A stretch of DNA of 64,000 nt, from contig JACYLU010000002.1 in the NCBI GenBank assembly GCA_015272325.1, forward strand, positions 124,001 to 188,000, given 5' to 3'. The stretch's first letter is position 1. Every line of letters starts with the position of its first letter. The notes beneath the pieces are model-generated. The model worked only from the letters and a program-made list of their open reading frames with translations. It had not been told where the DNA came from and searched no databases. The translations under genes and the position numbers were made by a program. Of this stretch, positions 8,474-53,847 are shown piece after piece. This DNA comes from Synechococcales cyanobacterium C42_A2020_086 (lineage in GTDB: Bacteria > Cyanobacteriota > Cyanobacteriia > Elainellales > Elainellaceae).

Positions 8474-8480
8474 CTAGCCA

Positions 8481-10332: not shown

Positions 10333-10403
10333 CTTGCTGTCAATAACTTGGCATTGGTAAAAGGCAGTCCGGATGAGATACTAATCCCGAGATACTAATT
10401 CCT

Positions 10404-11354: not shown

Positions 11355-11501
11355 TTGCTATTTGTGACTCGAGAGTTGCAGGTCGATCAATTATCTCGAT
11401 TTATCTCGATCAATTTATCGCGATCAATTCTTGGGGGCAATCTGCGGTTAATATCTAGCCAATTGGATTCCTGCTCGCCCTAGATCTTTCGGAGGTCGTC
11501 T

Positions 11502-12161
11502 GTGCCAGCCGCATCTATCGCGCCCCGAACCCTCGTGCCTCGTGTGTTAGTTATCCTCAATGGCAAAGGAGGTGTCGGTAAGACCACTACAGCAGTCAAC
11601 TTGGCGGCGGCTTTGAGTGAGTCTAAACGGCGGGTGCTGCTCGTTGATGCCGATCCCCAAGGCTCTGCGACGTGGTGGGTCGAGCGCAGCGGCGGCATGG
11701 GGTTTGATTTGGCCCAAGAGCAAGACCCCACTCTGCTGGGGAATCTACGCCAGATCCGCGACTATCCGCTGATTGTGGTTGATACACCGCCAGCCCTCAA
11801 TTCTGAAACCTTGGCGGCCGTGATTCCCGCTGCCGACTATCTGTTGCTGCCAACTCCGCCCGCCCCAATGGATTTGTCGGCTCTCATCGAAACCGTGAAA
11901 CGAGCCGTGATTCCCGCTGGGGTTGCCCATCGCGTGCTGCTAACCCGGGTCGATCCGCGCAGCCAAAACGAAGCCAACGAGGCCCGCAAAACCCTCGTCG
12001 AGATGGGAATTCCAGCCTGTAAAACCGTTATTCGCGCCTATAAAGCCCACGAACGGGCCGCCTTGGAGGGACAGTCAATTTTGCAGTGGCGCGGTCGCAA
12101 CGCGGGGGAAGCCCGAGCTGATTATCAGCGAGTTGCTCAGGAAATTCAGCAGGATTGGTAG
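11502..12161 (+). CDS. ParA-family ATPase, probable McdA-type carboxysome positioning protein
   Basis: A 219-residue deviant-Walker ATPase. The Walker A motif [16 protein letters not shown] (residues 21-36) keeps the signature lysine K22, followed by [15 protein letters not shown] and the Walker B-like [12 protein letters not shown] at 11502 is chosen because a GGAGG site lies 8-10 bases upstream. The next gene, 146 bp downstream, encodes a disordered Gln-rich coiled-coil protein with a C-terminal Trp. That pairing matches the type 2 McdA/McdB arrangement described for beta-cyanobacteria, where McdA on the nucleoid spaces carboxysomes. A general ParA partitioning role is the alternative. Confidence 0.75.
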
Positions 12162-12307
12162 GGCAACGGCCGATGAAGCGACCTCAAGAGGAGCCAGCGA
12201 ACTGAGAAAGTTTTGTTACAGTGAGACCAGTGAACAGGAGACAGGATTTAGAGTGAACAGGGTGGGGATGCGCGGTATAGTGCGCAGCGGCAGAATGGGA
12301 GGATGTC

Positions 12308-13045
12308 ATGGCTAGAAAGCGGCTGTCAGATCTATTACGAGAAGAAGCAAATAAATCGCCTGCCGATGCTTCGCTGAGCGAAACTCCAGCCAACGAGTCC
12401 CATGCCCAGCCCGCTGCTCCAGCCAGCACCAAAGAAACTCACCGTCAAGAAGCGATACCGGACGCTGAGGCAACTGAGCACAGCAGTCTTAACAGCAGCA
12501 ACGGAACGCCAGCAGGGGCAATAGCCGCTGCCCCCTCAGACCCTGCTACTTCTCGTCGCCATAGCCCCACCAAGGCAGAGCTAGAAGCAACGATTGCGGA
12601 ATTACGATCCACGCTGCAGCAAACCCAGGACGCGGCTCAGCAGCAGGAAGCAACCTTGCAACAGCAGATTACTCACCTCACGTCAGAGTTGGCGTCGCAG
12701 CAGGCGCTGATCGAGCAATTGCAAACCGAGGTGCAGCAGGTGCAGTCGCTCAAGGCACAGCTTGAAGAAGCCCGCAAGGTCATTTTGCAGCTCTCTCAGG
12801 TGAATGCCCAGCCTGCACCGCCTCTGAAGGCATCCCCAGCCTCTCCAGGCTCATCGCCAGCGGCAGAGCCAGAGTTGGAAACGACTCAGCCAGTTCGTCC
12901 TGTTCCCAAACCGACCTCAACGCCGTCTAAGCATCAAATTGCGCTCCGGCAGATGCTTGCTCACCCCACGCAGCCTGGCTCGCTGCCCAAGATGTCGTCT
13001 GAGGAAAGCAAACTCTCGGAAACCGACATGGGCTGGGTGGATTAG
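12308..13045 (+). CDS. Gln-rich coiled-coil protein, probable McdB-type partner
   Basis: A 245-residue protein without a catalytic domain. The N-terminus is short and charged (MARKRLSDLLREEANK). Residues about 20-95 are low-complexity and probably disordered. Residues about 95-165 form a Gln-rich coiled coil (TLQQTQDAAQQQEATLQQQ). The tail is again disordered and ends SETDMGWVD, with a single Trp three residues from the end. A charged N-terminus, Q-rich centre and terminal Trp are the features I recall for McdB proteins, which load McdA-driven positioning onto carboxysomes. It follows the ParA gene directly. Confidence 0.65.
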   Translation: MARKRLSDLLREEANKSPADASLSETPANESHAQPAAPASTKETHRQEAIPDAEATEHSSLNSSNGTPAGAIAAAPSDPATSRRHSPTKAELEATIAELRSTLQQTQDAAQQQEATLQQQITHLTSELASQQALIEQLQTEVQQVQSLKAQLEEARKVILQLSQVNAQPAPPLKASPASPGSSPAAEPELETTQPVRPVPKPTSTPSKHQIALRQMLAHPTQPGSLPKMSSEESKLSETDMGWVD

Positions 13046-13209
13046 GCTCGCTTCCTTCCCATTGCGGTTTTGCTACCCTGGAGAGCGGCACTGACTCAAT
13101 GCTTGACTCGATGCCATAGATTCGGTCGGGTTTCAACGGGAGGCGGCTGGTTTTGACTGTAACGATTAAGATAGTTGAAGAAAGTACTGGCCAACCTAAA
13201 ATAAACTGC

Positions 13210-14499
13210 ATGACATCCACCCTGATTAATTCCGCCCTGCCTCGGCTGAATGCTCCAACGCTACACCGCCTGCCCAATGGGCTGACCATCATCGCCGAGC
13301 AACTGCCGGTGGAAGCCGTGAATCTGAGCCTGTGGCTGGGAGTGGGTTCCGCTGTGGAAAGCGATGACATTAATGGTATGGCGCATTTCCTGGAGCACAT
13401 GATCTTTAAGGGCACTCAGCGCCTCCAGAGTGGTGAGTTTGAGCAGCGCATCGAGCAGCGCGGGGCAGTCACAAATGCGGCCACTAGCCAAGATTACACT
13501 TACTACTACATCACGACTGCACCCCAAGACTTTGCGCAGCTAGCTCCGCTGCAAATCGACGTGGTGCTGAATGCGGCCATTCCCGATGATGCCTTCGAGC
13601 GCGAGCGGCTGGTAGTGCTAGAGGAAATCCGCCGCTCTGAAGATAATCCTCGCCGTCGGACTTACTATCGCTCGATGGAAACGGCCTTTGAACGCTTGCC
13701 CTACCGTCGTCCGGTATTAGGTCCGGCTGAGGTGATCGCAGGGCTGAAACCGCAGCAAATGCGAGATTTTCATGCCACCTGGTACCGCCCTCAATCAATG
13801 ACCGCCGCCGTTGTGGGCAATCTGCCCGTTGAGCAGCTGATCGATATCGTCGCTGAAGGATTTGCTCACTGCGATGTGGCTCACTCAACAGAGGTTTTTC
13901 CTCCTAAGCTACCCGATGCTAGCCCCGAAAGCGCCTTTACTGAAATCACTCGCCAAGAGCACATTGATCCTAGCCTGCAGCAAGCCCGTTTGGTGATGAT
14001 GTGGCGTGTCCCTGGAATGGTTGACCTGCTCCAAACCTACGCGCTGGATGTGCTGGCCTCGGTGCTGGGTTACGGGCGCACGGCTCGTCTGGTTTGGGAT
14101 CTACGAGAGGAGCGTGGTCTGGTTTCGAGCATTTCCGTCAGCAATATGACCTACACACAGCAGGGGGTGTTCTACATCTCGGCGCAATTGCCGGTGGAAC
14201 ATCTAGAGGCAGTAGAGGCGGCGATTGTGCAGCACATGCGGAAGCTGCAAACTGAGCTGATTACCGAAGCGGAGATTCAGCGGGTGCGGACTTTGGTCGC
14301 GAATCGCTATATCTTCAGCAACGAAACGCCGAGCGACCGTGCCGGGCTGTACGGTTACTACCATGCCGTCATGGGCGATCTCGCTCCTGCACTGCTTTAC
14401 CCGGTCCACATCCAGGCATTGACTGCCGCCGATCTGCAAGCCGCCGCCCAGCAGTATCTATCGCCGGATGCCTATGGCGCTGTTATTCTTAGGCCCTAG
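13210..14499 (+). CDS. M16-family zinc peptidase
   Basis: A 429-residue processing-peptidase-like protein. The inverted zinc motif HFLEHMIF (HxxEH) is at about residues 60-67, with the downstream Glu in the RERLVVLEEIRRSEDNP block about 75 residues later, as in pitrilysin/mitochondrial processing peptidases. The C-terminal half is the usual inactive M16 domain (SVLGYGRTARLVWDLREERGL). ATG at 13210 gives the normal N-terminus; a TTG start at 13153 would add 19 unlikely residues. Cyanobacteria often carry a second M16 gene next to this one, but none is adjacent here. Substrate unknown. Confidence 0.88.
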   Translation: MTSTLINSALPRLNAPTLHRLPNGLTIIAEQLPVEAVNLSLWLGVGSAVESDDINGMAHFLEHMIFKGTQRLQSGEFEQRIEQRGAVTNAATSQDYTYYYITTAPQDFAQLAPLQIDVVLNAAIPDDAFERERLVVLEEIRRSEDNPRRRTYYRSMETAFERLPYRRPVLGPAEVIAGLKPQQMRDFHATWYRPQSMTAAVVGNLPVEQLIDIVAEGFAHCDVAHSTEVFPPKLPDASPESAFTEITRQEHIDPSLQQARLVMMWRVPGMVDLLQTYALDVLASVLGYGRTARLVWDLREERGLVSSISVSNMTYTQQGVFYISAQLPVEHLEAVEAAIVQHMRKLQTELITEAEIQRVRTLVANRYIFSNETPSDRAGLYGYYHAVMGDLAPALLYPVHIQALTAADLQAAAQQYLSPDAYGAVILRP

Positions 14500-14514
14500 C
14501 CTCATGGGTGCAGT

Positions 14515-15387
14515 ATGTGGGACAGTATGTGGGAAGCGATTGCGGCAGACATTACGCGGGTGACGGGTCATCCCTTCCACCCAACGCAGCAGCGCTCGAT
14601 TGGCGGCGGCAGCATCAATCAGGCCTACTGTCTCACAGACGGGCAGCGCCGTTTCTTCGTCAAGCTGAATCAGGTTAGCCGCCTGGCCATGTTCGAGGTC
14701 GAGGCGCAAGGCTTGCAGCAAATTGCCGATACCCACACCATCCGCGTGCCGCTACCGCTCTGCTGGGGCACCACCGACCGTGCTGCCTACCTTGTATTGG
14801 AATGGCTCGATCTCGGCTCAAACAATCGGCAGGGATGGGCCGTCATGGGGCAGCAGTTGGCAGCCATGCACCGGGTGACGAGTCCGCAGGGCTTTGGCTG
14901 GGAGCGCAGCAACATCATTGGGGAAACCCCCCAGATGAATCCCTGGACCGCGAGCTGGGTCGAGTTCTTCAGTGAACACCGCTTGGGCTACCAATTTCGT
15001 CTAGCCGAACGGCGCGGCGGCCACTTTCCCCAAAAAGCCGAACTGCTGGCAGCCATTCCCGACTTGCTAGCTGGGCACGAGCCACCGCCCTCGCTGGTCC
15101 ATGGCGACCTGTGGACGGGCAATGCAGCGCTAACTCGAGACGGCGAACCCGTGATTCTTGATCCGGCGGTTTACTTTGGCGATCGCGAAGTCGATCTGGC
15201 CATGAGCCAACTTTTTGGCAGCCTGCCACCCGAGTTTTACCGCGCCTACGAGCAAGCCTATCCACTGCCCCCGGGTTATGCGCAGCGCCAAACGCTCTAC
15301 AACCTGTATCACATTCTGAATCACTTCAATCAGTTTGGCGGCGGCTACGCGGCTCAAGCCAACCGCATGATCGCTTCGCTGCTGTGA
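14515..15387 (+). CDS. Fructosamine kinase family protein
   Basis: A 290-residue kinase-like protein of the fructosamine/ketosamine-3-kinase family, which phosphorylates sugar adducts on protein amines so that they fall off (deglycation). Visible motifs: the Gly-rich loop IGGGSINQAY (about residues 28-37), the ATP-binding Lys in FFVKLNQ, the catalytic loop LVHGDLWTGN (about 194-203) and the metal site ILDPAVYFGDREVDLAM (about 213-229). It starts 15 bp after the M16 stop, so the two may be co-transcribed. Confidence 0.88.
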   Translation: MWDSMWEAIAADITRVTGHPFHPTQQRSIGGGSINQAYCLTDGQRRFFVKLNQVSRLAMFEVEAQGLQQIADTHTIRVPLPLCWGTTDRAAYLVLEWLDLGSNNRQGWAVMGQQLAAMHRVTSPQGFGWERSNIIGETPQMNPWTASWVEFFSEHRLGYQFRLAERRGGHFPQKAELLAAIPDLLAGHEPPPSLVHGDLWTGNAALTRDGEPVILDPAVYFGDREVDLAMSQLFGSLPPEFYRAYEQAYPLPPGYAQRQTLYNLYHILNHFNQFGGGYAAQANRMIASLL

Positions 15388-15412
15388 CGTATTGGTGAAG
15401 GTTACTGATCTA

Positions 15413-16111
15413 CTACTGATCCAAAATTGTTTTTTTGAGAATCGCACCCTTGGCATCGAGATCATAAACAATAGGGATGCCGGTGGCGAGTTCGAGCCGC
15501 GGCACTTCCTCAGGCGACAGGTTTTCTAGCTTCATGATAATTGCCCGGAGGGAATTGCCGTGGGCCGAAACCAGGACGTTCTCGCCGTTTATCAAGTGCG
15601 GCATAATCCGGTTCTGGAAATAAGGCACAACTCGCTTCTGAGTGTCTTCTAAGCTCTCGCCACCGGGCGGGCGCACGCTGTAGGATCGACGCCAGAGCTG
15701 CACCTGTTCTGCTCCAAACTTGGCGGCAGTTTGGGCCTTGTTTAGCCCTTGCAGTTCGCCGTAGTAGCGTTCATCGAGGGCAGCACTGGTGAAGATCGGC
15801 AGTTCTTCATTTGGATCGCCCTGATAGTGATCCCAGCCATGCCAGTCTTCGTCGTCTGCCTCGTGCTGAATCACGGGAATTTTGCCGCCGCAGATGTCGT
15901 CACATTCGGTGAGGCAAATGACGGCCGTTTCAATTGCCCGAATCAGCTTGCTGGTGAAGCAAACATCGACGCGATAATCCTTGAGCTTACAGGAGGCAAT
16001 GGTGGCTTCTGCCCGACCGCGCTCGCTGAGGGGAACATCTACCCAGCCGGTAAATTTATTGGCGGCATTCCACAGGCTTTGGCCGTGGCGAATCAGGATC
16101 AATTGAGACAT
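15413..16111 (-). CDS. gpmA: 2,3-bisphosphoglycerate-dependent phosphoglycerate mutase
   Basis: A 232-residue cofactor-dependent phosphoglycerate mutase interconverting 3- and 2-phosphoglycerate in glycolysis. It shows the phospho-histidine motif LIRHGQSLWN (residues 5-14), GWVDVPLSERG, LDERYYGELQGLNK (about 118-131), RPPGGESLEDT and the second histidine VSAHGNSLRA (about 184-193). Length is close to the usual 230-250. It converges with the fructosamine kinase gene and lies downstream of pyruvate kinase on the same strand, with 280 bp of repeat-bearing DNA between them. Confidence 0.92.
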   Translation of the reverse strand: MSQLILIRHGQSLWNAANKFTGWVDVPLSERGRAEATIASCKLKDYRVDVCFTSKLIRAIETAVICLTECDDICGGKIPVIQHEADDEDWHGWDHYQGDPNEELPIFTSAALDERYYGELQGLNKAQTAAKFGAEQVQLWRRSYSVRPPGGESLEDTQKRVVPYFQNRIMPHLINGENVLVSAHGNSLRAIIMKLENLSPEEVPRLELATGIPIVYDLDAKGAILKKTILDQ

Positions 16112-37721: not shown

Positions 37722-38684
37722 TCACTTGGTTAAACAATTATTCAAAGACTGAAGCAGAAATAGGGCATCCAGTTTACGGCCAATTAACACGATTTGATTC
37801 TTAGGAGCAGTTGTCCATTCGCTGTCATCAATTGTGAATCGTTTACCACTAAGTTGGAATAAATGACGCTTGGGACTTTCGGCAAACCAGAGTACCCCTT
37901 TTGCTCGAAACACAGTGTCAGGCAATTGATAATCTAAAAACTGCTGAAATTTCTTCAAGGCAATGGGGCGATCGCTCTGGAAAGATACAGACATGAATCC
38001 GTCGTTGTTTAAGTGCTGGGTATTGGGGTTGAGTTGTGTGCCAGCATCTAAAGCACTATCGAGGGTAGAGAGATTGATATCAAGAATGAGCGACAAAGGG
38101 ACTTTACCATGCTGCGATCGTAAAATTCGAGCACCGTTTTTTACAGAGTAAAAATACTTTTCTAGCGCCTCTAATTTTCGTTCAGATACTAAGTCAGTTT
38201 TATTCAGTAGAATAATATCTCCATACAGGATTTGGTTCATCGCTGCGCCACTGTTGTAATGTTCATCCGGCGTAAAAGTTTCAGCGTCAACCACTGTCAA
38301 GATGGCATCTAGCTGAGTCAAGTCTCTTAAGTCTGTTCCTAAAAATGTCAGGGCGATTGGCAGGGGATCGGCAACTCCAGTAGTTTCAACGACCAAATAC
38401 TCAATCCGGTCACGCCGTTCTAAAACCCGATAGACTGCATCAGACAAACTATCATTAATCGTGCAACAAATACAGCCATTCGTCAGTTCAATCATGTCCT
38501 CCTCAACGGTAATGAGGAACTGACTGTCAATGTTAATATCACCAAATTCATTGACTAAAACAGCAACTTTGTAAGCTTCAAAGTTTTGCAAAATATAGTT
38601 CAACAGGGTTGTCTTGCCACTACCCAAAAATCCAGTGATGATAGTGACAGGGAGTTTCTGATCAGCGGTTGAGAGATTAGACAT
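37722..38684 (-). CDS. COG0523-family GTPase (putative zinc metallochaperone)
   Basis: A 320-residue G3E GTPase. The P-loop [13 protein letters not shown] (residues about 18-30), the metal motif [10 protein letters not shown] (CxCC, about 69-78), [12 protein letters not shown] (switch) and NKTDLV (NKxD) are complete, and the C-terminal CobW domain follows. These proteins use GTP hydrolysis to deliver metal to client enzymes. Next to hisI and folE, two zinc enzymes, and under a Zur-type operon, a zinc-delivery role is likely. It lacks the His-rich stretch of its neighbour at 39502. Confidence 0.88.
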
Positions 38685-38764
38685 GGATTGTAAGAGAAGA
38701 AGTAGGGAGTAAAGAAATCAAGGGGTAAAGAATTCCTTCACCTCCTACTCCTTAGACTAACGGC

Positions 38765-39403
38765 CTAATGAAAAGATGGAGTATGACGAATCAGATCCAG
38801 AAACTCCTGGCGGGTTCTGGCATCTTCAGCAAATACGCCTTGCATTGAGCTAGTCACTGTCCAAGAACCTGGCTTTTGTACACCGCGCATTACCATACAC
38901 ATGTGGGTTGCTTCTACTACAACAGCGACCCCCTGGGGCTTGAGCAAGCCTTGCAAAGCATCAGCAATCTGCTGAGTCAGGCGTTCCTGGACTTGCAGAC
39001 GACGGGCATACATTTCACAAATTCGAGCGATTTTAGATAGCCCAATCACTTTGCCGTTGGGAATGTAGGCAACATGGGCACGCCCCAAAACTGGCAAAAT
39101 GTGATGTTCGCAGGAGCTGAATAGATCAATGTCCCGCACAAGCACCATTTCATTGGTATCTTCGTGGAAGACAGCGCCATTGAGCAACTCATCTAGGGAT
39201 TGTTGATAGCCAGAGGTGAGGAATTTGAGGGCTTTGACAACTCGCTTAGGAGTGTCGCGCAATCCTTCACGATCAGGGTCTTCACCCATACCTAATAGCA
39301 GGGTGCGAACGGCTTGCTGCATCTCTGCTTCAGAAACACGCGGCTTAGATTCTGTAATCACCGCTTGCTTGCGCATATCATTCGGAAAAACGGATAGTGT
39401 CAT
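38765..39403 (-). CDS. folE: GTP cyclohydrolase I
   Basis: A 212-residue FolE (type IA) that makes 7,8-dihydroneopterin triphosphate for folate. Diagnostic blocks are [36 protein letters not shown] (zinc Cys and His), [23 protein letters not shown] and [18 protein letters not shown] (third zinc Cys). ATG at 39403 is preferred; an upstream in-frame start at 39484 adds a poor extension. All zinc ligands are present, so the paralogue is zinc-dependent, and flanking COG0523 GTPases may load it. Confidence 0.9.
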
Positions 39404-39501
39404 GGGTGAAATTGGATGAAGGACATCAGTTGTAAGGATAAGGGGCGTGGTCAGCAATCCCCTCCCTCCAGCAGAAAACTGCACTGCTGAAAGAATTCGG
39501 A

Positions 39502-40569
39502 TCAGGCAAGGCAGGCGGCTAACTGTTGTCGCAGTTCATCTGCATCCAGATTGCGCCCAATCAAAACCATCTGGTTTTTGCGTGGTGTGCGCCATTCGTC
39601 TCCTTGAAGGTCAAACCGGGGACCGCTGAGCTGGAAGATATTACGGAGATCACTTTCTGCAAACCAGAGAATCCCTTTGGCTCGGAATACCTCCTTTGGC
39701 AACTGCTCTTGCAAAAACGTTTCAAACTTTTTCACGTCAAAGGGGCGATCGCTCTCAAAGGAAATAGATACAAATCCATCATTCTCTAGGTGAGCTGAAT
39801 GGTGATGATGATGTTCATGGGGATGATGGGGATGAGCTTCATGGGGAGCATGGGAGTGATGATGGTCGTGCTCATGTTGGGTTTGCTCAATCTCTTCTTG
39901 AACAAGATCCGCATAGGCTGCTGGATTGTTATAGCCCACATCTAAAATGAGGGGCAGCGGCACTTTCCCATACTGGCTATGAAGAATCCTGGCTCCCACC
40001 TTTACTTCACTGATATAAGCTTCTAGTTCTTTGATTTTCTCAGGCAATGCCAGATCGGTTTTGTTTAAGATCACGACATCGCCGTAAGCAATCTGCTTAA
40101 ATGCAGCTTCGCTATCAAAATAATCAGGCGTAAAAGTTTCGGCATCAACAACGGTGATAATTGAATCTAGTCGAGTGAAATCGCGTAATTCAGTGCCCAA
40201 GAATGTGAGGATAATGGGCAGGGGATCGGCGACTCCCGTGGTTTCAATTACCATGTAATCTACGCGATCGTCCCGCTCCAGCACGTTATACACCGCATCC
40301 ACTAATCCATCATTAATCGTACAGCAAATACAGCCATTGCTCAGTTCCACCATGTCCTCATCCATCGAAACGAGCAACTGGCTGTCAATGTTAATGTCGC
40401 CAAATTCATTCACTAAGACAGCAACTTTTAAATCCTGACGGTTATTCAGAATATGATTCAATAAAGTTGTTTTTCCACTGCCGAGAAACCCGGTGATGAT
40501 TGTGACAGGCATGCCTCGCTTGGGGATATCCAGATCGGCGGGTTTGGAAAGAGTCGCTGTGTTAGTCAT
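39502..40569 (-). CDS. COG0523-family GTPase with His-rich metal loop
   Basis: A 355-residue G3E GTPase with the same core as the gene at 37722: [38 protein letters not shown]. Residues about 225-270 insert a metal-binding stretch rich in His ([17 protein letters not shown] and HEHHHHHS) before the CobW C-terminal domain. His-rich COG0523 proteins of the ZNG1/YeiR/YciC group bind several zinc ions. The two GTPases are clear duplicates, differing mainly in this loop. Confidence 0.9.
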
Positions 40570-40767
40570 ACTAAGTTCCTCAAAAAATTTGGCTAGACTT
40601 CAAACAAGGCTGCAATCAATTCATCTTTCTCAACAGGTAAAACATCCAACGAGATTGGCGAGAAGATTTCTAGTTAGGAGTTTCTTAATCCAGCTTTATA
40701 CGTGCGGATACGGTAGTGGACGACCAATCCAGAACAGGGTTATAAGCTAGCTTTCTCTAGGAAGACC

Positions 40768-41223
40768 TCAGCATTCGTCATAGAGAGCCTGCACCTTCTG
40801 CTGCATCGTGTGAAAAATGTTGTAAAAACCATTGGCACGAGAAGAAGTCAAGCTGACATCGAGTCCAGTTCGCTGAATGAAATCGGGTTTTAGCTGCATG
40901 ATTTCCGCAGGTGTTAATCCGCTCAATCCCTCGACCAGCAGCCCCACTAATCCCTTTGTCAGTTGAGAGTCGGAATCACCCTGAAAACTGACTTTGCCTT
41001 GTTCTAGACCAGCCGTCACATACACTTGAGACACACAACCCGGCACGCGGTTGGCCGCTACCTTCTGAGTGGCAGGAAACGGTGGCAGGTGCTTGGCAAA
41101 CCAAAGCAGGTACTCATAGCGCCGCTTCGGTTCCGAAATCTGTTGGAACCGTTGGACAATCTGCTCAAGCGAGGCAGGCAAGGGCTGGGAGACAGTCGGC
41201 ATATCAGTTCCAAGATCAAGCAT
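40768..41223 (-). CDS. sufE: SufE family protein
   Basis: A 151-residue SufE-like sulfur acceptor. The conserved blocks RYEYLLWFAKHLPPFP and NRVPGCVSQVYV, with the sulfur-accepting Cys near residue 63, are present, with SRANGFYNIFHTM at the end. SufE takes sulfur from cysteine desulfurase SufS for Fe-S assembly. It heads the likely zinc operon, with a Zur-like box 8 bases before ATG 41223 (29 bases before an alternative ATG at 41202). Why SufE is in the regulon is unclear; some SufE-like proteins cooperate with metal transfer. Confidence 0.85.
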   Translation of the reverse strand: MLDLGTDMPTVSQPLPASLEQIVQRFQQISEPKRRYEYLLWFAKHLPPFPATQKVAANRVPGCVSQVYVTAGLEQGKVSFQGDSDSQLTKGLVGLLVEGLSGLTPAEIMQLKPDFIQRTGLDVSLTSSRANGFYNIFHTMQQKVQALYDEC

Positions 41224-41230
41224 TCATTAA

Positions 41231-41247
41231 AATGATAATCATTCTCA
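41231..41247 (-). promoter_or_regulatory. Zur-like box before sufE operon
   Basis: On the minus strand this reads TGAGAATGATTATCATT, identical over 17 bases to the boxes at 36331 and 43980. It probably controls sufE and the genes downstream to hisI. Confidence 0.75.
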
Positions 41248-41469
41248 TAATACAGGATCTTTAATGATCTGGACGGAGCTTGTAGAGCGTTTATCGAGTT
41301 ATCTGTCAATTGATGGGGCGCGATCGCACGGGCGTTACTCAATTGCCCAAGTCCCATGCATTAAGTGACAGGTGCTGTCGTCACCGTTCGACATCCCAGG
41401 CAAAACCAATAGACCCTGGAGCCACGTCACTGAGCCAATCAGTGATTCATACCCCTGTTTGCAACAGGA

Positions 41470-41661
41470 CTACGGTTCACGGTAGGGGCATCCGACATTT
41501 CCGTAAGAACAAAAAACGCAACAATCCCCAAGTAAGGGCTTGAGTTGCCGTCCACACCCCTCACATTTGTAAACGTAAACACAGACACCGAGAGGAATTT
41601 CCTCAGCCTTTTGATAGCCACAGGATGGACAGGTGATCGTGGATATGCGATTGGTCACCAT
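41470..41661 (-). CDS. GDCCVFCSYG zinc-ribbon protein
   Basis: A 63-residue cysteine-rich protein. It has CPSCG, then CEGCG, then the signature GDCCVFCSYG and a final Cys-Pro (GCPYREP), eight cysteines in the main motifs. This GDCCVFCSYG family is small, conserved and commonly found near metal-resistance or metal-homeostasis genes. It ends the thrS operon. It probably binds one or two zinc ions; its job is unknown. Confidence 0.75.
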   Translation of the reverse strand: MVTNRISTITCPSCGYQKAEEIPLGVCVYVYKCEGCGRQLKPLLGDCCVFCSYGNVGCPYREP

Positions 41662-41689
41662 TAGAGAGACCAGAATTCAACCGCATCCA

Positions 41690-42091
41690 TCATAAGGTAA
41701 TCACCTGATCTGGCGGATTGCTGCTTAATGCTGTGTATAAATCGGGAAAACAACCAACGGTCACGCCTTCCACCACCTCTTTGACCGTACAGTTTCCAGG
41801 TTCTTTGCGTCCGGTTCCGTCTGGATTGCACCAGCGTGGCTCACCTTCTGCCAGATTGCGTTCCAGGGCACACATGTCGCACATCATTAACAGAATGGTT
41901 TGTTCCTTGGCTACCTTGGCCAGTCGTTCTCCAATCGGATCGCCCTTTCGCAACACAAAGCAGTTGTCATCAAAGAAAAACATTCCGACCACTTCAACGC
42001 CATGTACGCCTACCTCTAACTGGGGCAGAATCATTTGCCCTAGCTTGTAGGTGCCACCGCGAGGATGGGCGAAAACGTATGCAACTTTCAT
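41690..42091 (-). CDS. DsrE-like protein
   Basis: A 133-residue protein with the DsrE/DsrF-like fold pattern: an N-terminal VAYVFAHPRGGTYKLGQMI strand-loop, LLMMCDMCALERNLAEG with two Cys, a loop with WCNPDG and NCTVKEVVEG, and the C-terminal VGCFPDLYTALSS.. ending DQVITL. It resembles a DsrE-related group (SaoD-like). DsrE proteins carry sulfur on a Cys. It is 12 bp downstream of thrS and upstream of the zinc-ribbon gene, so it belongs to the same putative Zur operon. Confidence 0.7.
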   Translation of the reverse strand: MKVAYVFAHPRGGTYKLGQMILPQLEVGVHGVEVVGMFFFDDNCFVLRKGDPIGERLAKVAKEQTILLMMCDMCALERNLAEGEPRWCNPDGTGRKEPGNCTVKEVVEGVTVGCFPDLYTALSSNPPDQVITL

Positions 42092-42103
42092 AGGTCTCCT
42101 GCC

Positions 42104-43966
42104 TCAAATTTGTTGTTTTGTTTGAATCGCGTGTTGCATTTTTTCCTGAAGTTCTGACAGCGTTAATGAGCCAAGTTCTCCCGATTGGCGGGTTCGCACA
42201 CTTAAGGTCTGGTTTTCCACCTCTCGCTTACCAACCACCACAACGATGGGAACTTTTTCAAGTTCTGCGGTGCGAATTTGTTTTCCTAAACGCTCTCCAC
42301 TCGCATCAACTTCTGCTCGATAGCCCAGTTGTTTAAGGTGTTGGGCGATCGCAGTTGCATAGTCCCGCTGTTCATCACTGACAGGCAAGAGTCTCGCCTG
42401 GACTGGAGCTAACCAGAGGGGAAAGTCTCCCGCATAATGCTCAATCAAAATACCGAAGAACCGTTCCAGTGAGCCGAAGATAGCCCGGTGAATCATAATC
42501 GGACGCTGCCGTGAACCATCGGCTGCTACATATTCCAACTCAAAGCGTTCCGGCAAGTTAAAGTCCACTTGAATAGTGGAGCACTGCCATTGACGGGCGA
42601 TCGCATCTTTGATCTTGATGTCGATTTTGGGGCCATAAAATGCACCACCGCCCTCATCCGTCACATAGTCCCAACCCTTGGTATCTAAGGCCTGAACCAG
42701 CGCATTAGTGGCTAGTTCCCAAATGTTGTCCGTACCGACCGACTTGCCAGGACGAGTGGAAAGGTAGACCTCATATTCAGTGAAACCAAAATCCGACAAA
42801 ATCTGCTCAGTCAAATTCAACACGCCCAAAATCTCGTCTGCCACCTGTTCTGGCAAACAGAAAATGTGAGCATCATCTTGAGTGAAGCCGCGCACCCGCA
42901 TCAAACCGTGCAACACACCCGATCGCTCGTAGCGATACACGGTGCCCAATTCTGCCCAGCGAATCGGCAGTGCCCGATAGGAGTGCAAATGACTTTGATA
43001 GGTCAACACATGAAACGGGCAATTCATCGGCTTTAGCTGGTACTGCTGTGCCTCAATCTCCATCTGGTCAAACATATTTTCGCGGTAAAAGTCAAAGTGA
43101 CCCGATGTTTTCCAGAGATTGAGATTGGCAATATGGGGCGTGTAAAGCAGTTCATACCCGGCATCCAAATGCGCTTTGCGCCAGTAATCTTCAATCAAGA
43201 GCCGCATCCGTGCCCCTCTGGGATGCCAGAAGACAAGTCCACCCCCTGCATCCTCCTGAATACTAAACAGATCCAGATCTTGTCCCAATCTGCGATGGTC
43301 GCGGCGCTTGGCTTCTTCTTTTTGGGTGAGATACGCCTGGAGTTGTTCTTGAGTTTCCCAGGCTGTGCCGTAAATCCGCTGCAACTGCGGTTTAGTTTCA
43401 TCACCACGCCAATAGGCTCCCGCTACACCCTCCAGGGCAAAAGCATCGGGGTTAATTTCACCCGTCGAGTTGAGATGTGGTCCGGCACACAAGTCCCACC
43501 AACACTCCTTGCCTATTCGCTTCTGGGTCAGGGTTTCTGCTGTGATGTGAAATAAGGAAGCTTCTGACACTCCTTTGAGTGTATCAACATAGCCAATGAA
43601 GTAGCGCGTGATGGGTTCATTCGCGGGAATGCTATCGAGGATTTCTAGCTTGTAGGGTTCGTTGAGCTGTTCAATCTCTGCGCGAATTTGTTCGCGATCG
43701 ACGACTTCTCGAATGATCGGCAGATTTGCACAAATAATGCGCCGCATCTCAGCTTCAATCTGAACGAGGTCATCAGGGGTAAAGGGTTCTGGACGGTCAA
43801 AGTCATAGTAGAAGCCAGTGTCTGTCCAGGGTCCAATCGTCACCTTTGTCTCTGGAAACAGTGCTTGTACTGCCATTGCCAGCACATGAGCGCAGGTATG
43901 CCGAATCCGTAGCAGCGTTTCAGTACTGGTTTGATTGGAAGAGGACTGAAGGACAGAACCCATCAT
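42104..43966 (-). CDS. thrS: Threonyl-tRNA synthetase, Zur-associated second copy
   Basis: A 620-residue class II synthetase. It begins with the editing (N2) domain ([17 protein letters not shown]), without the TGS domain of the E. coli enzyme. The catalytic core shows the zinc ligands in [27 protein letters not shown] and [15 protein letters not shown], and the last ~100 residues form the anticodon domain. A Zur-like box lies 14 bases before ATG 43966. In Anabaena a second thrS induced by zinc shortage has been described, and this gene's setting fits that. Zinc ligands are retained, so it still needs zinc. Confidence 0.92.
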
Positions 43967-49029: not shown

Positions 49030-49887
49030 TCAATTCCACAGCCGTTCGGCATGGTGGCGGAGGTGGTCTTCCATGAAGGTGGCGATGAAGTAGTAGCTGT
49101 GGTCGTAGCCCTGCTGCATCCGTAGGGTCAGGGGTTGACCTGCCTCGGCACAGGCCTGCTGAAACACCTGCGGCATTAGCTGTTTGTCCAGAAAGGCATC
49201 GGCGGTGCCCTGATCAATCAGAATGGGAGAATCAAGCTGGGTGGTCCGCACGAGTTCGCTGGCATCGTAGGCGCGCCATGTCGCCTGATCGCTTCCCAGA
49301 TAGCCAGTGAAGGCTTTTTGGCCCCAGGGGCAGCGCATCGGAGCCACAATCGGCGCAAAGGCCGACACCGAGCGATACTGCCGCGGGTTCTTGAGGGCGC
49401 AGATCAAAGCCCCATGCCCACCCATCGAGTGTCCAAAGATGCCCTGCCGCTCTGGGTTGCCAGGAAAGTGGTCCGCAATCAGGGCTGGCAATTCTCGCGT
49501 GATGTAGCTGTACATCTGGTAGTGGGTTTGCCAAGGTTGCTGAGTGGCATCCACATAAAAGCCGGCACCGCTGCCAAAATCCCAGTCATCGTCTTCTCCG
49601 GGAATGCCGGTTTGACGGGGGCTAGTATCGGGCGCTACGAGCATAACGCCGTACTTCGCGGCAAACTGCTGTGCCCCGGCCTTGGTCGTGAAGTTCTCCT
49701 CGGTGCAGGTGAGTCCCGACAGGTAGTACAGCACCGGCACAGTTTCAGTTTGGGCTTGCGGCGGCAGATAGACCGCAAACTTCATCGGGCTGCGGCAGCA
49801 GGTTGAATCATGCCGATAAAACCCAACCGTACCGCCAAAGCAGGCGTATTGATTGAGAGACTCTAAGGTGGAGGTCGTGGCAGTCAT
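49030..49887 (-). CDS. fghA: S-formylglutathione hydrolase
   Basis: A 285-residue esterase-D-type serine hydrolase of formaldehyde detoxification, releasing formate and glutathione. The block [20 protein letters not shown], the nucleophile [11 protein letters not shown] (about residues 139-149), the acid region [12 protein letters not shown] and the histidine GYDHSYYFI (about 258-266) are as expected. ATG at 49887 gives the usual N-terminus ([13 protein letters not shown]). The partner glutathione-dependent dehydrogenase is not in the window. Confidence 0.92.
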
Positions 49888-50307
49888 GGCAGAAATCCTA
49901 GCGGCGGAAGGCACTGTCTGCCATTATGCCGTCGGCGGAGTGTTGGCGGAGCATGCTTGCCAAAATTTGCTGTGTATGGCTAAGCTGCGCATGGCTAAAT
50001 TGATGCCCTGCGATCGGTCCAATGTTCACGTTCACCTGTCCACGTTCACCCGCCGCAGTACCCTTTCGGATTTAGCCGAATTTTATACGGCTGGTGTACC
50101 GCGGAACGCTAGGCAGCGGCAGATGGCTTCCTAATCTGCACCAGCCATTCTCAACTGTCCGCTGCCAATAACCCGACAAACTGTCAGGCGAGGATTCCGG
50201 ATACAAGGCTGTCCATTCATGTGATTGGGATTGCTCGTAATGCAATCAAGTTTCATAGGAGTCATCCTGGTTCCTGACGTTTTCTGATCTCCAAGCTAAT
50301 ACCCAAG
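49888..50307. other. Intergenic region, no gene recognised
   Basis: About 420 bp. Contains short duplicated words (AAGCTGCGCATGGCTAA, GTTCACGTTCACC..CCACGTTCACCC). An open frame at 49853-50134 has no family features and overlaps the fghA start on the other strand, so it is not called. Confidence 0.35.
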
Positions 50308-52515
50308 CTAACGAGGTCGCCAGCATACGAGCTGAGCTTCCAGGGCCGCCTGCGGATTCAGCACCTGCACCTGCTGACTCTGGCAGAGCCGCTGTACCTG
50401 TTGGCTGACCCGCTCGATCTCAATGTAGGGAAACTGCCGCTGTGCATGGTGCAGCAGAGTTTGCAGCCCAATCACCGGATGCGTCTGTACCAGACTGAGT
50501 AGATATTCTTCGAGTTGGCGCATTAGTCGCGGATCGAGATCTGAGGCAGACTCTGGTTTCTGGGCATCCTCTGGCACTGCTGTATCTGCTGGATGGATCA
50601 CCCCGAGCTGCTGGAGCAGGGTGCAGTCGTTGAGTAGTCCTGAGTCTTGGATCAGCATTTGGAGTTGCTTCAGCCCGACCGTTTGGCTGCCAATCACCAG
50701 ATCGCCTTCGCGGGCATCTTTCACCAAGTTGTAGTAGGTAGCAAGGTACTGCACCGAGAGCAAATCTGGCGTGATGTGGTAATGGGGAACACCGGTAAAA
50801 ATCTGGCGATAGAGCTGATGCCCCTTCAGCGCTCCATGACCTACGGTTTCCGCCCGGATCAGGATCAGAGTCTGGCAGGCCCGCTGCTCCACGGCGCGCT
50901 GGCAGGCATCCATGATGTAAAAGAAGGTGTTCATCCCCTGATCCTCCGTCCAGACGATGCCGTAGCTCTCGGGGCGATCCGAATGCTCATAGCCAAAGGA
51001 GCAGCCGGCAAACTTGGTTCGCTCAAGCAGCGGCGCTTTGATCCGTTCAATGCCTAGGGCTAGCAGCACTTCCTTCAAGCTTTCCACGAGTTCCAGCGAG
51101 GTGAAATAGCGGATGCGGCTAATACTCTCCTGCACCTTCGTCAGCTCGTCGTGCCATTTCAGCCGAAAGGTAGCCAATCGGTCTGAGTCTGCCGTAGGGG
51201 TGGTCGTTCCATTGCCAGAACTGTGGTTCGTACTGTGGTCTATATAGGCACCATTCTGCACAGCAACGGGGAGGTCCAGAGAGGATGCTGCCGGAGCCAC
51301 CTCAGATTGCCTGGAAGCCGAGCTTGACAGCTGATCTGCAGACTGGCCAAGACCATTGGTTTCCGTTCGCTGCATCAGCCGTTCTTTGTGCTCTTGAAAC
51401 ACATCTCGTCCCAAACGCAGTGCATCGCGGGGGTTCGTGCGGCCGCCAGGGAAATAGTCCTCGAGATACTGCCCGCTCAGGGGGTAGATCACCGTATCGG
51501 GATGGGGGCTGGCTTGGCGATGCATTGGATTGAGGCGCGAAGCCCACAGCGAGGCCGCCTGCTCCAGGGTAATTAGCCGCAGCGGTACTTCCCGGTCGAT
51601 GCGGGCCCGGTGCGACTGGTCAATCCGGGTTTTGTAGTGCTCCCAGGTGTTGGTGAGGATGCTGATGATGATCAGAAAATTGGTGTCTTCGTCGTGAATT
51701 TTGGTGTTGACGTTGAACAGGGTTTGCAAATCCAGGGTGCCATCTGGCAGGCGGGCGATGCTCTCGAGCTGGTCAAAGCAGAGCACAATCGGCTGAGTAT
51801 TCAGCGCCACCCGCCCAAAATTAGCCAGAATTTCGCGGGCGGCTTGCTCGGTGTCAATCGAGCTTTTCAGGCGCAAGGCTTGCAGCGATTCTTCGCTGAG
51901 ATCATCTACCCGCAGCCATTCGCAGGCGAGGGAGTAGAGTTTGGCGTCAGTCAGGTCGTGCAAAAGGCCAAAAAATTTGTCGGCATTGTAGATGCTGTTC
52001 GGGCTGACTTGCTTGTAGATCTCCTTCAGTCGCTTGATGAATTGCTGGCGGTCGGTTTGCAGCAAATCGAGAATATTTTCCTTGAGCCGATCGCGTAGGC
52101 TGCGCTGTTTCAGGGTCAGCAAAACGTTTTTCAACCACAGCAGCAGCTGCGAGTATTTCTGTCCGGCTGGAACCTGTACCAAACTATCGACCGTGTAGCG
52201 CAGAATATGCCGCCAAATGTAATCGCTTTGGGGAAAAGGAGGAATATAGGCAAAAAAGGCTTTGTGATTAAAGGCTCGCTTCAGTCGCCCTAGCAAATAG
52301 GTTTTGCCCGAGCCGCTATCACCGTCAAGAATAATCGTGCGGGTGTAATGATCGCGACCGACCTGATCCAGGGTGGCTTCGATAACAGCAATCGCCTCTT
52401 GATGGATCGATTCCACAACCGGCTCCGGATCTTTTTGCTTGTGCCAAAAGTTGACAGAGCGGAGGTTATCGAAAGGATTTGTACTTCTGAGAATGAGGTC
52501 ATCGATCGATGCCAT
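50308..52515 (-). CDS. Uncharacterised P-loop ATPase, two-part protein
   Basis: A 735-residue protein. The N-terminal half is a P-loop ATPase: Walker A LDGDSGSGKTYLLGRL (about residues 63-78), Walker B PIVLCFDQLESIARL (about 252-266), and a C-terminal helical lid with arginine-rich RTNPRDALRLGRD, reminiscent of Orc/STAND-type ATPases. A Ser-rich linker (about 385-445) leads to a C-terminal mixed region (LLERTKFAGCSFGYEHSD; LILIRAETVGHG) that resembles a nuclease-like or sensor fold, then a terminal winged-helix-like part. I cannot name a family. It is just downstream of a multi-winged-helix gene on the same strand. Confidence 0.6.
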   Translation of the reverse strand: MASIDDLILRSTNPFDNLRSVNFWHKQKDPEPVVESIHQEAIAVIEATLDQVGRDHYTRTIILDGDSGSGKTYLLGRLKRAFNHKAFFAYIPPFPQSDYIWRHILRYTVDSLVQVPAGQKYSQLLLWLKNVLLTLKQRSLRDRLKENILDLLQTDRQQFIKRLKEIYKQVSPNSIYNADKFFGLLHDLTDAKLYSLACEWLRVDDLSEESLQALRLKSSIDTEQAAREILANFGRVALNTQPIVLCFDQLESIARLPDGTLDLQTLFNVNTKIHDEDTNFLIIISILTNTWEHYKTRIDQSHRARIDREVPLRLITLEQAASLWASRLNPMHRQASPHPDTVIYPLSGQYLEDYFPGGRTNPRDALRLGRDVFQEHKERLMQRTETNGLGQSADQLSSSASRQSEVAPAASSLDLPVAVQNGAYIDHSTNHSSGNGTTTPTADSDRLATFRLKWHDELTKVQESISRIRYFTSLELVESLKEVLLALGIERIKAPLLERTKFAGCSFGYEHSDRPESYGIVWTEDQGMNTFFYIMDACQRAVEQRACQTLILIRAETVGHGALKGHQLYRQIFTGVPHYHITPDLLSVQYLATYYNLVKDAREGDLVIGSQTVGLKQLQMLIQDSGLLNDCTLLQQLGVIHPADTAVPEDAQKPESASDLDPRLMRQLEEYLLSLVQTHPVIGLQTLLHHAQRQFPYIEIERVSQQVQRLCQSQQVQVLNPQAALEAQLVCWRPR

Positions 52516-52542
52516 GGCGTCAATCCTCTTGTGCACTGTCAG

Positions 52543-52575
52543 CGTTTTAGCTGTGTTTTAGCCGTGTTTTAGCCG
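52543..52575 (+). repeat. 11-base tandem repeat, three copies
   Basis: Three tandem copies of GTTTTAGCCGT-like units lie between the ATPase gene and its neighbour. Confidence 0.8.
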
Positions 52576-52622
52576 TTGAAGTAACCCGATTGGCGATGCC
52601 ATCCTAGGGCGATATGAGATGG

Positions 52623-53387
52623 TTATATCACTTTAATAAAAAACAGCGGACTGCCAGCCCGTTGCTCAATTCCGGCGCTGATTTGTTCGGGGGTATAGTC
52701 TTGAGTATGAACGATTGCCCGCAATTCAATTTTGTCATTTCGTTGCAGACGGTAAAGGATTTGATCTAGCTCCTCACGAGCCAGCGGCTGTAATTTTTGC
52801 CGCAGATAAAAAATGGGTAAATAGTTGTGGGTTGCTTCTTCTTGATCGAGCCGTTGAATCAGGGCTAACACCTCTTCATCACTGGGTTTGGAGTCGGGTA
52901 TTCCCTCAGGAAGCGCCTGCCGAATCGCTTGAAATTGATTCACCAATTGCGCCAAGCAATCTTGTCCCCGAGGGGTTAGCCAAACTTCGGCATTTTGGCG
53001 CTTGAGCTGTGTTTCCACTGTGATCAGTCCACGCTCTAGAAACTTTTGCAGCAGGGCATCGCGGGCGGCCGCCTTCAGGGTAGACGAGGTGAGCTGTGCC
53101 GGCGTGATTTTGCGGGCAGCAGCTAGTTTGTGCAGCACCTTCAGTTCCGCTGTGGTGATCGGCAAGGCGTGCTCGGGCAACTTTAATAACGCCTGACCGG
53201 CTGGCGTAATTTTTACGGTTGCAATTTCGCGGCTAAAGTCTACTAAGCCGGCTTTGTTTAGGTTCTGGCAAATCTTATCTTTTTTGGCAAACGATTTGAA
53301 ACTTGGGCTTGTCAAGGCAGCACGATGGTGGCGGCATTCCTGCAGCTTTAGCAAAAATTTCAGCTCATCTAAGGGATGGACACTCAT
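52623..53387 (-). CDS. Multi-winged-helix protein of unknown function
   Basis: A 254-residue protein, started at ATG 53387, built of several small helical domains that look like tandem winged helices: LVDFSREIATVKITPAGQALLKLPEH, then LITVETQLKRQNAEVWLTPRGQDCLAQL, then LQPLAREELDQILYRLQRNDKIELRA. The in-frame frame extends to 53561, but that part is low-quality and overlaps the ccmK gene. It probably binds DNA and may act with the ATPase 107 bp downstream. Family not identified; the pairing is inference from position. Confidence 0.6.
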   Translation of the reverse strand: MSVHPLDELKFLLKLQECRHHRAALTSPSFKSFAKKDKICQNLNKAGLVDFSREIATVKITPAGQALLKLPEHALPITTAELKVLHKLAAARKITPAQLTSSTLKAAARDALLQKFLERGLITVETQLKRQNAEVWLTPRGQDCLAQLVNQFQAIRQALPEGIPDSKPSDEEVLALIQRLDQEEATHNYLPIFYLRQKLQPLAREELDQILYRLQRNDKIELRAIVHTQDYTPEQISAGIEQRAGSPLFFIKVI

Positions 53388-53502: not shown

Positions 53503-53847
53503 TCAAGCCGACAACGGCGGCGGAAACCGGATCGGTTGAGCGAAGGTTCGCAGGTCGGCACTGCGGCAGATCGGCAGCGCGGCTTCTAGATTGTCGTGGG
53601 GCTGAGCAATGATATGGTGCGACAGCAACTCGCCCCCGTTGACCTGAGCAATAGCAGCCAATCCTGCCTGCACGGCTACCTCTACTTCAGCAACCGCACC
53701 GCGAATGAGTACGGTGATGCGACCGAGATCCGTATTCTCGAACCCCACTAGCGTTACGCTCGCACCTTTGCACATGGCGTCAGCCACCTCCAGTGCAGTA
53801 GGAATTCCCAAAACCTCAACCATGCCCAAGGCAACCGCCATACTCAA
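53503..53847 (-). CDS. CcmK-type carboxysome shell protein (single BMC domain)
   Basis: A 114-residue bacterial-microcompartment hexamer protein. AVALGMVEVLGIPTALEVADAM, VTLVGFENTDLGRITVLIRG, VAVQAGLAAI and VNGGELLSHHIIAQPHDNLEAALPI are the standard CcmK blocks. The pore loop reads FENTDLG where CcmK1/2 have YEKIGSG, so the pore should differ in charge and selectivity. The C-terminus carries an extra ~20 residues. It is an orphan, away from any ccm operon, like satellite ccmK genes of other cyanobacteria. It is followed on the same strand by the winged-helix and ATPase genes. Confidence 0.88.
   Translation of the reverse strand: MSMAVALGMVEVLGIPTALEVADAMCKGASVTLVGFENTDLGRITVLIRGAVAEVEVAVQAGLAAIAQVNGGELLSHHIIAQPHDNLEAALPICRSADLRTFAQPIRFPPPLSA

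What the first reader, a model, noticed from the sequence alone, without database searches (positions are those of the whole stretch)
50308..53387. Uncharacterised winged-helix plus Orc/STAND-like ATPase module
A protein of several winged-helix-like units is followed by a large ATPase with Walker A/B, a lid, a linker and a second half of unknown fold (LILIRAETVG). DNA-binding plus ATPase pairs of this kind can be replication, transposition or defence systems. I could not assign it, which makes it the best candidate for an undescribed system outside the island.
Basis: inference. Interest (0 to 1): 0.6.

Follow-up and report, generated by a model that had tools for sequence, protein, structure and literature searches.

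The report
Orphan Orc-like ATPase with winged-helix partner
Two neighbouring cyanobacterial genes look like the DNA-recognising half of a predicted DNA-degrading defence machine, kept intact in this genome although the DNA-pumping nuclease that normally sits beside them is missing.

Summary
In detail: a 254-aa protein of three winged helices (52623-53387, -) and a 735-aa ATPase (50308-52515, -) form one same-strand unit. The pair is a cyanobacterial family: 47 of 386 genomes carry the ATPase at E<=1e-50, and the winged-helix gene lies just upstream in 80 of 81 loci. The ATPase is an Orc/Cdc6-type AAA+, then a domain with restriction-endonuclease-like topology but no catalytic motif, then a winged helix. 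In most relatives the third gene is an exonuclease/PD-(D/E)XK/FtsK fusion with conserved active sites. That three-gene logic was predicted in 2024 as a 'HerA/FtsK capture' anti-invader system (PMC10853773, read in part). In this genome the fusion is absent, as in 14 of 16 further genomes chosen for lacking it locally. Fusion-less pairs of relatives evolve under constraint. The AAA+ catalytic glutamate is Gln or Asn in 106 of 110 copies, suggesting an ATP-locked DNA clamp. So: not housekeeping, not wholly undescribed; an effectorless variant of a known, experimentally untested kind. Its function without the nuclease is unknown; I favour DNA recognition/marking retained for a partner in trans.

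The parts
52623..53387 (-). Triple winged-helix protein, 254 aa (wHTH1 about 5-69, wHTH2 about 79-150, wHTH3 about 170-254)
   Evidence: ORF; AF2 model with 65-row alignment, pLDDT 91.3; MarR-type winged-helix matches Z up to 10.9; upstream of the ATPase in 80 of 81 loci
50308..52515 (-). Orc/Cdc6-type AAA+ ATPase, 735 aa (ORF can be read from 52536, 742 aa; residue numbers here follow the 742-aa reading)
   Evidence: AAA+ core about residues 46-396, best solved match 7jgr_G Z 15.7, rmsd 3.1 over 238 residues
51181..51333 (-). Disordered linker of the ATPase, about residues 402-452
   Evidence: pLDDT under 50 at 402-445
50581..51198 (-). Middle domain, residues 447-652: alpha-beta-beta-beta-alpha-beta core, restriction-endonuclease-like topology without D...(D/E)xK; invariant or near-invariant S513, W529, E531, R561
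   Evidence: DSSP of model; conservation
50308..50532 (-). C-terminal winged helix of the ATPase, residues 669-742
   Evidence: helix-strand-helix-helix-strand-strand order in the model, pLDDT about 90
52541..52576 (-). Three near-identical 12-bp direct repeats (ACGGCTAAAACA-like) between the two genes, candidate regulatory site
   Evidence: seen directly in the sequence; not tested

Best explanation
The pair is the DNA-recognition half of a predicted 'HerA/FtsK capture' type anti-invader system whose nuclease-translocase gene is missing from this lineage, most likely by loss. In complete relatives the triple winged-helix protein selects a DNA feature, the Orc/Cdc6-like ATPase closes on that DNA as an ATP-bound ring or clamp and, through its nuclease-like domain and terminal winged helix, loads the third protein, an FtsK motor fused to a DEDD exonuclease and a Cas4/RecB-like PD-(D/E)XK nuclease, which pumps and degrades the DNA. 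In the window's genome the first two components remain and the third gene is gone; the pair probably still binds and marks DNA and either serves another nuclease in trans or acts as a non-destructive DNA-bound switch. Shown here: gene pair, predicted folds, family, conservation of active sites, absence of the fusion gene, constraint on fusion-less relatives. Inferred: DNA binding, ring formation, loading, anti-invader role, what the orphan pair does.
For: Conserved pair in 80 of 81 loci. The ATPase is followed directly by the FtsK fusion in 61 of the 110 copies in the tree. Fusion = DNA_pol_A_exo1 4e-26 + PDDEXK_1 5e-15 + FtsK_alpha 2.5e-6 + FtsK_SpoIIIE 6e-42, with exonuclease, ExK and Walker motifs conserved in 53 copies. 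Orc/Cdc6 fold: Z 15.7. The ATPase pairs with nucleases in other arrangements: fused to an RNase_T exonuclease (L077, L078, L164), next to DUF1802 proteins in 5 of 5 regions examined, fused to HerA next to a DUF559 nuclease in the window's own genome (L076). Same component set described in PMC10853773. A conjugative Pseudanabaena plasmid carries the three-gene unit. Fusion absent from own genome. The window copy nests with fusion-less Elainella (support 100) inside a set that also holds fusion-bearing rows. dN/dS 0.05-0.18 in fusion-less Elainella, Symploca and L141/L159 pairs where dS could be computed.
Against: No direct evidence of defence: no PADLOC match for the window pair beyond a weak P-loop hit, no mobile element or defence gene recognised beside it, ordinary chromosomal neighbours. 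The winged-helix protein is not fast-evolving, contrary to the published description. The nuclease-like reading of the middle domain rests on topology alone; the C-terminal part did not reach significance on its own in profile comparisons. Direction (loss versus separate gain of the fusion) depends on the root. dS is saturated between window and Elainella, so constraint on the window's own copies is only indirectly shown.
Confidence: 0.55

Rival explanations
1. A cyanobacterial chromosome-maintenance module: the Orc-like ATPase and winged-helix protein bind chromosomal sites and, with the FtsK-nuclease and neighbouring ParA/ParB-like genes, process DNA during segregation or double-strand break repair, much as HerA-NurA resects ends.
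For: A ParA-like gene is present in the fetched DNA of 37 of 81 loci, ParB-like genes sit next to several units, and the fusion carries an FtsK_alpha domain. Pair and fusion evolve at similar, moderate rates. No relative found in viral contigs or phages.
Against: Patchy: 47 of 386 genomes. Congeners lie in distant parts of the tree (Brasilonema L084, L096, L133; Dolichospermum L114 against L113, L116, L125), pointing to transfer. Found on a conjugative plasmid. No ParA-like gene stands in the window's neighbourhood map.
Confidence: 0.25
2. A decaying remnant: the nuclease went first and the two remaining genes are on their way out.
For: Fusion gene missing in own genome; the downstream esterase gene is not the neighbour in Elainella, where it lies on another contig, so the site has been rearranged.
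Against: Both ORFs are intact with the invariant residues. Window and Elainella share fusion-less pairs at about 70% ATPase identity, an old state. dN/dS well below 1 in fusion-less pairs.
Confidence: 0.12
3. A replication-initiator or partition pair of an integrated plasmid (Orc/Cdc6-like initiator plus winged-helix centromere-binding protein), with iteron-like repeats between the genes.
For: Orc/Cdc6 fold; the winged-helix model also matches pNOB8 AspA, a centromere-binding protein (Z about 10, tied with many MarR proteins); three 12-bp repeats in the intergenic DNA.
Against: The repeats are not obviously shared with Elainella L085 or Symploca (by eye); the usual partner in relatives is a nuclease-motor, not replication genes; chromosomal position among ordinary genes.
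Confidence: 0.08

Closest known systems
Orc/CDC6-coupled 'HerA/FtsK capture' systems (Rakesh, Aravind, Krishnan 2024, PMC10853773; abstract, sections 19, 22, 26 read)
   Same: Orc/CDC6 AAA+ with a nuclease-like domain before a C-terminal wHTH; separate multi-wHTH protein; in relatives HerA/FtsK with FtsK-alpha, 3'-5' exonuclease and REase
   Different: Window pair has no HerA/FtsK and no nuclease gene; wHTH protein not fast-evolving; cyanobacteria are not named in the paper's main text
Own-genome cassette G000:C22 (L076 7794-13267): DUF559 nuclease + 358-aa protein + 1049-aa Orc-HerA fusion, beside brxL
   Same: AAA+ domain homologous (73 bits against the window family profile); same DQ Walker B
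   Different: Fused motor, different nuclease, all present; its 358-aa protein does not match the window winged-helix profile significantly
wHTH-Orc-DUF1802 operons of cyanobacteria (L209-L212, L214)
   Same: Same gene order; ATPase aligned over window residues 3-591 (hhalign prob 99.75, E 3e-27); winged-helix protein matches the window family profile at 20-31 bits
   Different: Third gene is a DUF1802 protein, in one case with a sub-threshold Mrr_cat match; Walker B keeps the glutamate (FDE) in the three copies read
DndFGH / SspFGH
   Same: FtsK part of relatives matches PADLOC SspH at 2e-67; DndG also has three wHTH (paper)
   Different: No SspH, DndF or DndG match for the window pair
BREX BrxC/BrxD ATPases
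   Same: One relative (L036) passes the Pfam BrxC_BrxD cut-off (27.9 against 22.2 bits)
   Different: Window protein scores 10.9 bits; no other BREX gene recognised beside it

Membership tests
Orc/CDC6-coupled HerA/FtsK capture system | Orc/CDC6-family AAA+ ATPase | tested here: met
   7jgr_G Z 15.7, rmsd 3.1, 238 aligned; archaeal Cdc6 and TnsC next; Foldseek best hits ORC/Cdc6, four with E<=0.001
Orc/CDC6-coupled HerA/FtsK capture system | Inactive REase domain between the AAA+ core and the C-terminal wHTH | tested here: inconclusive
   Topology alpha-beta-beta-beta-alpha-beta and no catalytic D/ExK seen; no solved REase matched; the fold search covered residues 1-509 only
Orc/CDC6-coupled HerA/FtsK capture system | C-terminal wHTH of the ATPase | tested here: met
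   Residues 669-742 in winged-helix order; by secondary structure only
Orc/CDC6-coupled HerA/FtsK capture system | HerA/FtsK translocase in the operon | tested here: not met
   None beside the window pair and no relative of the fusion in the genome apart from an RNase D-like protein, E 2.4e-8. Met in relatives
Orc/CDC6-coupled HerA/FtsK capture system | Active REase in the operon | tested here: not met
   None beside the window pair; relatives have PDDEXK_1 with conserved ExK
Orc/CDC6-coupled HerA/FtsK capture system | Subset: separate protein with 2-4 wHTH | tested here: met
   Three wHTH, pLDDT 91.3
Orc/CDC6-coupled HerA/FtsK capture system | Subset: that wHTH protein evolves rapidly | tested here: not met
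   Mean identity over 300 locus pairs: wHTH 0.65, ATPase 0.59, fusion 0.69
Orc/CDC6-coupled HerA/FtsK capture system | Relatedness of the wHTH protein to DndG/SspB/FokI | tested here: inconclusive
   No PADLOC match; fold searches list mainly MarR-type proteins
Orc/CDC6-coupled HerA/FtsK capture system | Anti-invader activity | not testable with these tools
   No experiment; the 2024 paper also infers it
BREX BrxC/BrxD | Pfam BrxC_BrxD at or above cut-off | tested here: not met
   Window ATPase 10.9 bits against 22.2
STAND/NACHT | Pfam NACHT at or above cut-off | tested here: not met
   18.2 bits against 26.7

The most novel reading that the evidence does not exclude
The triple winged-helix protein and the Orc-like ATPase are a free-standing DNA clamp that cyanobacteria have repeatedly coupled to, and uncoupled from, different nucleases (FtsK-exonuclease-PD-(D/E)XK, RNase_T, DUF1802, DUF559-HerA). 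Because the AAA+ catalytic glutamate is naturally Gln or Asn, the clamp would lock on DNA in the ATP state, and in nuclease-free lineages such as this one it would work as a stable mark or roadblock on selected DNA rather than as a shredder.
Probability: 0.25. Interest if true: 0.65.

Novelty: new variant of a known kind. Interest (0 to 1): 0.42.

Why it matters
Orc/HerA-FtsK capture systems are so far only a computational prediction in the papers read. The cyanobacterial family gives an experimental set-up: complete three-gene units in Nostocales, a plasmid copy, tandem-ATPase versions and natural nuclease-free versions, all with one conserved recognition pair. Comparing them would tell whether recognition and destruction are separable, and whether the Gln/Asn Walker B makes an ATP-locked clamp.

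Tried and rejected
Housekeeping family: rejected, 47 of 386 genomes at E<=1e-50, 11 of 36 in the window's own order. BREX, STAND/NACHT, KAP: scores under cut-off for the window protein. TIR or active nuclease in the ATPase C-terminal half: no catalytic motif seen, topology only. Phage or viral origin: no relative among viral contigs or phage records. Partner nuclease elsewhere in the genome: not found with the fusion or with the DUF1802 protein (an empty answer without a positive control). Homology of the middle domain to the own-genome Orc-HerA fusion by profile: no hit for the C-terminal part; to the DUF1802-linked ATPases: only within the full-length alignment, not alone (prob 1.2). Solved relatives by sequence: none for the single ATPase, only weak P-loop matches for its profile. 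Absent from the fold-search lists: FokI, DndG, SspB for the winged-helix protein; restriction enzymes for the ATPase; this excludes nothing. Kinship of the winged-helix protein with MksE: one of 65 members at E 0.01, dropped. dN/dS for window against Elainella: dS saturated. Counting rule: 62 of 81 loci carry something labelled FtsK fusion, but the label also takes stand-alone exonucleases of about 310 aa (L118, L123, L142), so I quote the 61 of 110 directly following copies instead; several of these are cut at a contig or locus end. L034/L035 count as fusion-less although L035 has a fusion-like gene three ORFs on, so the 8 label changes overstate independent losses. The unnamed-genome set (46 loci with the ATPase, 35 with the fusion cluster, 43 with the winged-helix gene) overlaps the named set and was not added to it.
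Full report
The thing itself. One search gives two minus-strand ORFs in the stated order: 52623-53387 (254 aa; a longer reading to 53561 is possible, but relatives begin at about the 254-aa start) and 50308-52536 (742 aa; relatives start at M8, so 735 aa is likelier). The window ATPase reaches no Pfam cut-off (AAA_16 32.5 bits against 32.6), no curated NCBIfam cut-off and only weak PADLOC and PHROGs P-loop matches, and no solved chain by sequence. The winged-helix protein matches nothing above cut-off.

Distribution. In 386 cyanobacterial genomes the ATPase has a match at E<=0.001 in 78 and, by my count of the table, at E<=1e-50 in 47; the rest are more distant relatives that match the AAA+ part only. 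In the window's own order 11 of 36 genomes are at E<=1e-50. The scan of 84,980 species genomes found 216 relatives; of the best 80, all are named as cyanobacteria except one MAG labelled Tatlockia, L097 (a mis-binned contig is my inference). No relative among viral contigs or phages. Of the two plasmid records hit, one, the conjugative plasmid of Pseudanabaena PCC 7367, carries winged helix, ATPase and an FtsK protein in a row.

Gene neighbourhood. Over the 80 best named loci plus the window, a winged-helix gene lies on the same strand within two ORFs upstream of an ATPase in 80 of 81 (the exception starts at an edge of the fetched DNA), median gap 58 bp. The gene directly downstream is, in 61 of 110 ATPases placed in the tree, a protein usually of about 850-930 aa with 3'-5' exonuclease, PD-(D/E)XK, FtsK-alpha and FtsK domains; the plasmid version lacks the exonuclease. 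In 53 copies over 640 aa the exonuclease residues (DxE, N..FD, YxxxD), the nuclease D/ExK, four cysteines of a Cas4/RecB-like cluster and the FtsK Walker motifs are conserved (the reading of those motifs is from general knowledge). In 15 cases two ATPases follow in tandem; first copies form one clade and second copies nearly so. A ParA-like gene occurs in 37 of 81 loci.

The window's version. Downstream of the window ATPase comes an esterase gene (49030-49914), which in Elainella lies elsewhere. The genome (99.99% complete by the tool's figure) has no relative of the fusion beyond an RNase D-like protein. I searched 16 further genomes, chosen because their loci lack the fusion beside the ATPase or have tandem ATPases: 14 of 16 have no match over the nuclease-FtsK part; G396 (L095) and G401 (L151) have one elsewhere. 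Several of these are draft or MAG assemblies, so some absences may be gaps. The window copy groups with two Elainella copies (support 100), inside a 15-row set of 8 fusion-less and 7 fusion-bearing rows (support 99). The fusion-less label needs 8 changes on the tree, but some such rows have the gene nearby or elsewhere, so this is an upper count of losses. In fusion-less relatives with usable dS, dN/dS is 0.05-0.18 (Elainella, Symploca, L141/L159), like the other pairs compared (0.05-0.33, one pair with near-identical genes aside); L034/L035, whose unit is interrupted rather than empty, gives 0.19-0.26. Between window and Elainella dS is saturated.

Folds. The winged-helix model (pLDDT 91.3) has three winged helices; matches are MarR-type proteins (Z up to 10.9 over 83 residues) and, tied, the pNOB8 centromere-binding AspA. 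The ATPase model (pLDDT 86.1) has an AAA+ core best matched by ORC/Cdc6 (7jgr_G Z 15.7, rmsd 3.1, 238 residues), archaeal Cdc6 and TnsC/MuB, a disordered linker (402-445), a domain with alpha-beta-beta-beta-alpha-beta order, and a winged helix. That the middle domain is an inactive nuclease fold is an inference from topology and from the published architecture; it was not matched to a solved structure.

Walker B. The residue after the Walker B aspartate, the usual AAA+ catalytic glutamate (general knowledge), is Gln in 63, Asn in 43, Glu in 3 and His in 1 of 110 copies; the window has Gln. Tandem first copies are all Gln (15 of 15), second copies Asn in 13 of 14. The own-genome Orc-HerA protein and the RNase_T fusions also have Gln; three DUF1802-linked ATPases have Glu, and in a fourth the pattern was not found. 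The clade therefore probably binds ATP and hydrolyses it slowly or only with help. The genome scan was seeded partly with a pattern that allows Q, N or E here, so the bias is small but not nil.

Relatives with other nucleases. The AAA+ part is also found fused behind an RNase_T exonuclease (L077, L078, L164), in 5 of 5 regions between a winged-helix gene and a third gene of about 485-510 aa (L209-L212, L214), which in the two tested is a DUF1802 protein, one with a sub-threshold Mrr_cat match (20.8 against 21 bits), and fused to HerA next to a DUF559 nuclease in the window's own genome beside brxL (L076) and in L213. So the recognition pair is constant and the nuclease varies.

Literature. PMC10853773 (abstract, sections 19, 22 and 26, and passages read) describes mobile neighbourhoods of an Orc/CDC6 ATPase with an inactive REase before its C-terminal wHTH, HerA/FtsK sometimes with FtsK-alpha or a 3'-5' exonuclease, REases, and a 2-4 wHTH protein, and proposes anti-invader capture. 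PMC12839542 (abstract and passages) repeats this. Neither main text holds 'cyanobact'; supplements were not readable. Searches listed no paper that I could see to test such a system or to describe the cyanobacterial form; this covers only the open-licence library. Other papers were seen as search listings only.

Verdict. The protein families belong with the published component set; the window pair is not a complete capture system because HerA/FtsK and nuclease were tested and are absent. It is best called an effectorless variant. Function is inferred, not shown; the patchy distribution, scattered congeners and plasmid copy favour a conflict role over chromosome maintenance, but the ParA neighbours and moderate conservation keep that rival open.

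Noticed in passing
window 53503-53847 (-): A single bacterial-microcompartment shell gene (BMC domain, 2.4e-23) lies directly upstream of the winged-helix gene on the same strand; no such ORF stands at that place in the Elainella maps.
   Followed up: no
L076 (G000:C22) 7794-15786: The window's own genome holds a complete-looking cassette: DUF559 nuclease, 358-aa protein, Orc-HerA fusion of 1049 aa, with a convergent BrxL gene.
   Followed up: partly
L209-L212, L214: Cyanobacterial operons of winged-helix protein, Orc-like ATPase and DUF1802-type protein, three of them at a similar chromosomal place; a match to that ATPase is found in 81 of 373 genomes, many of those matches being the other families. 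DUF1802 is in only one paper of the library (listing).
   Followed up: partly
L077, L078, L164: The same AAA+ type fused behind an RNase_T exonuclease, independent support for an ATPase-exonuclease link.
   Followed up: partly
window 52623-53387, residues about 169-251: The third winged helix gives the best profile match to a Z-DNA-binding Z-alpha domain (1sfu E 0.003; Pfam z-alpha 0.057 for the window); Y212 (63 of 65) and D208 (57 of 65) are conserved. Weak.
   Followed up: partly
L121 and L122: Two Calothrix MAGs with nearly identical winged-helix and ATPase genes (dS 0.011 and 0.002) but diverged fusion genes (dS 0.13), suggesting exchange of the nuclease gene.
   Followed up: no
window 37722-43966: By eye, two CobW-like GTPases and a threonyl-tRNA synthetase gene in the low-GC stretch, resembling a zinc-limitation gene set (recalled, not searched; ORFs).
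   Followed up: no
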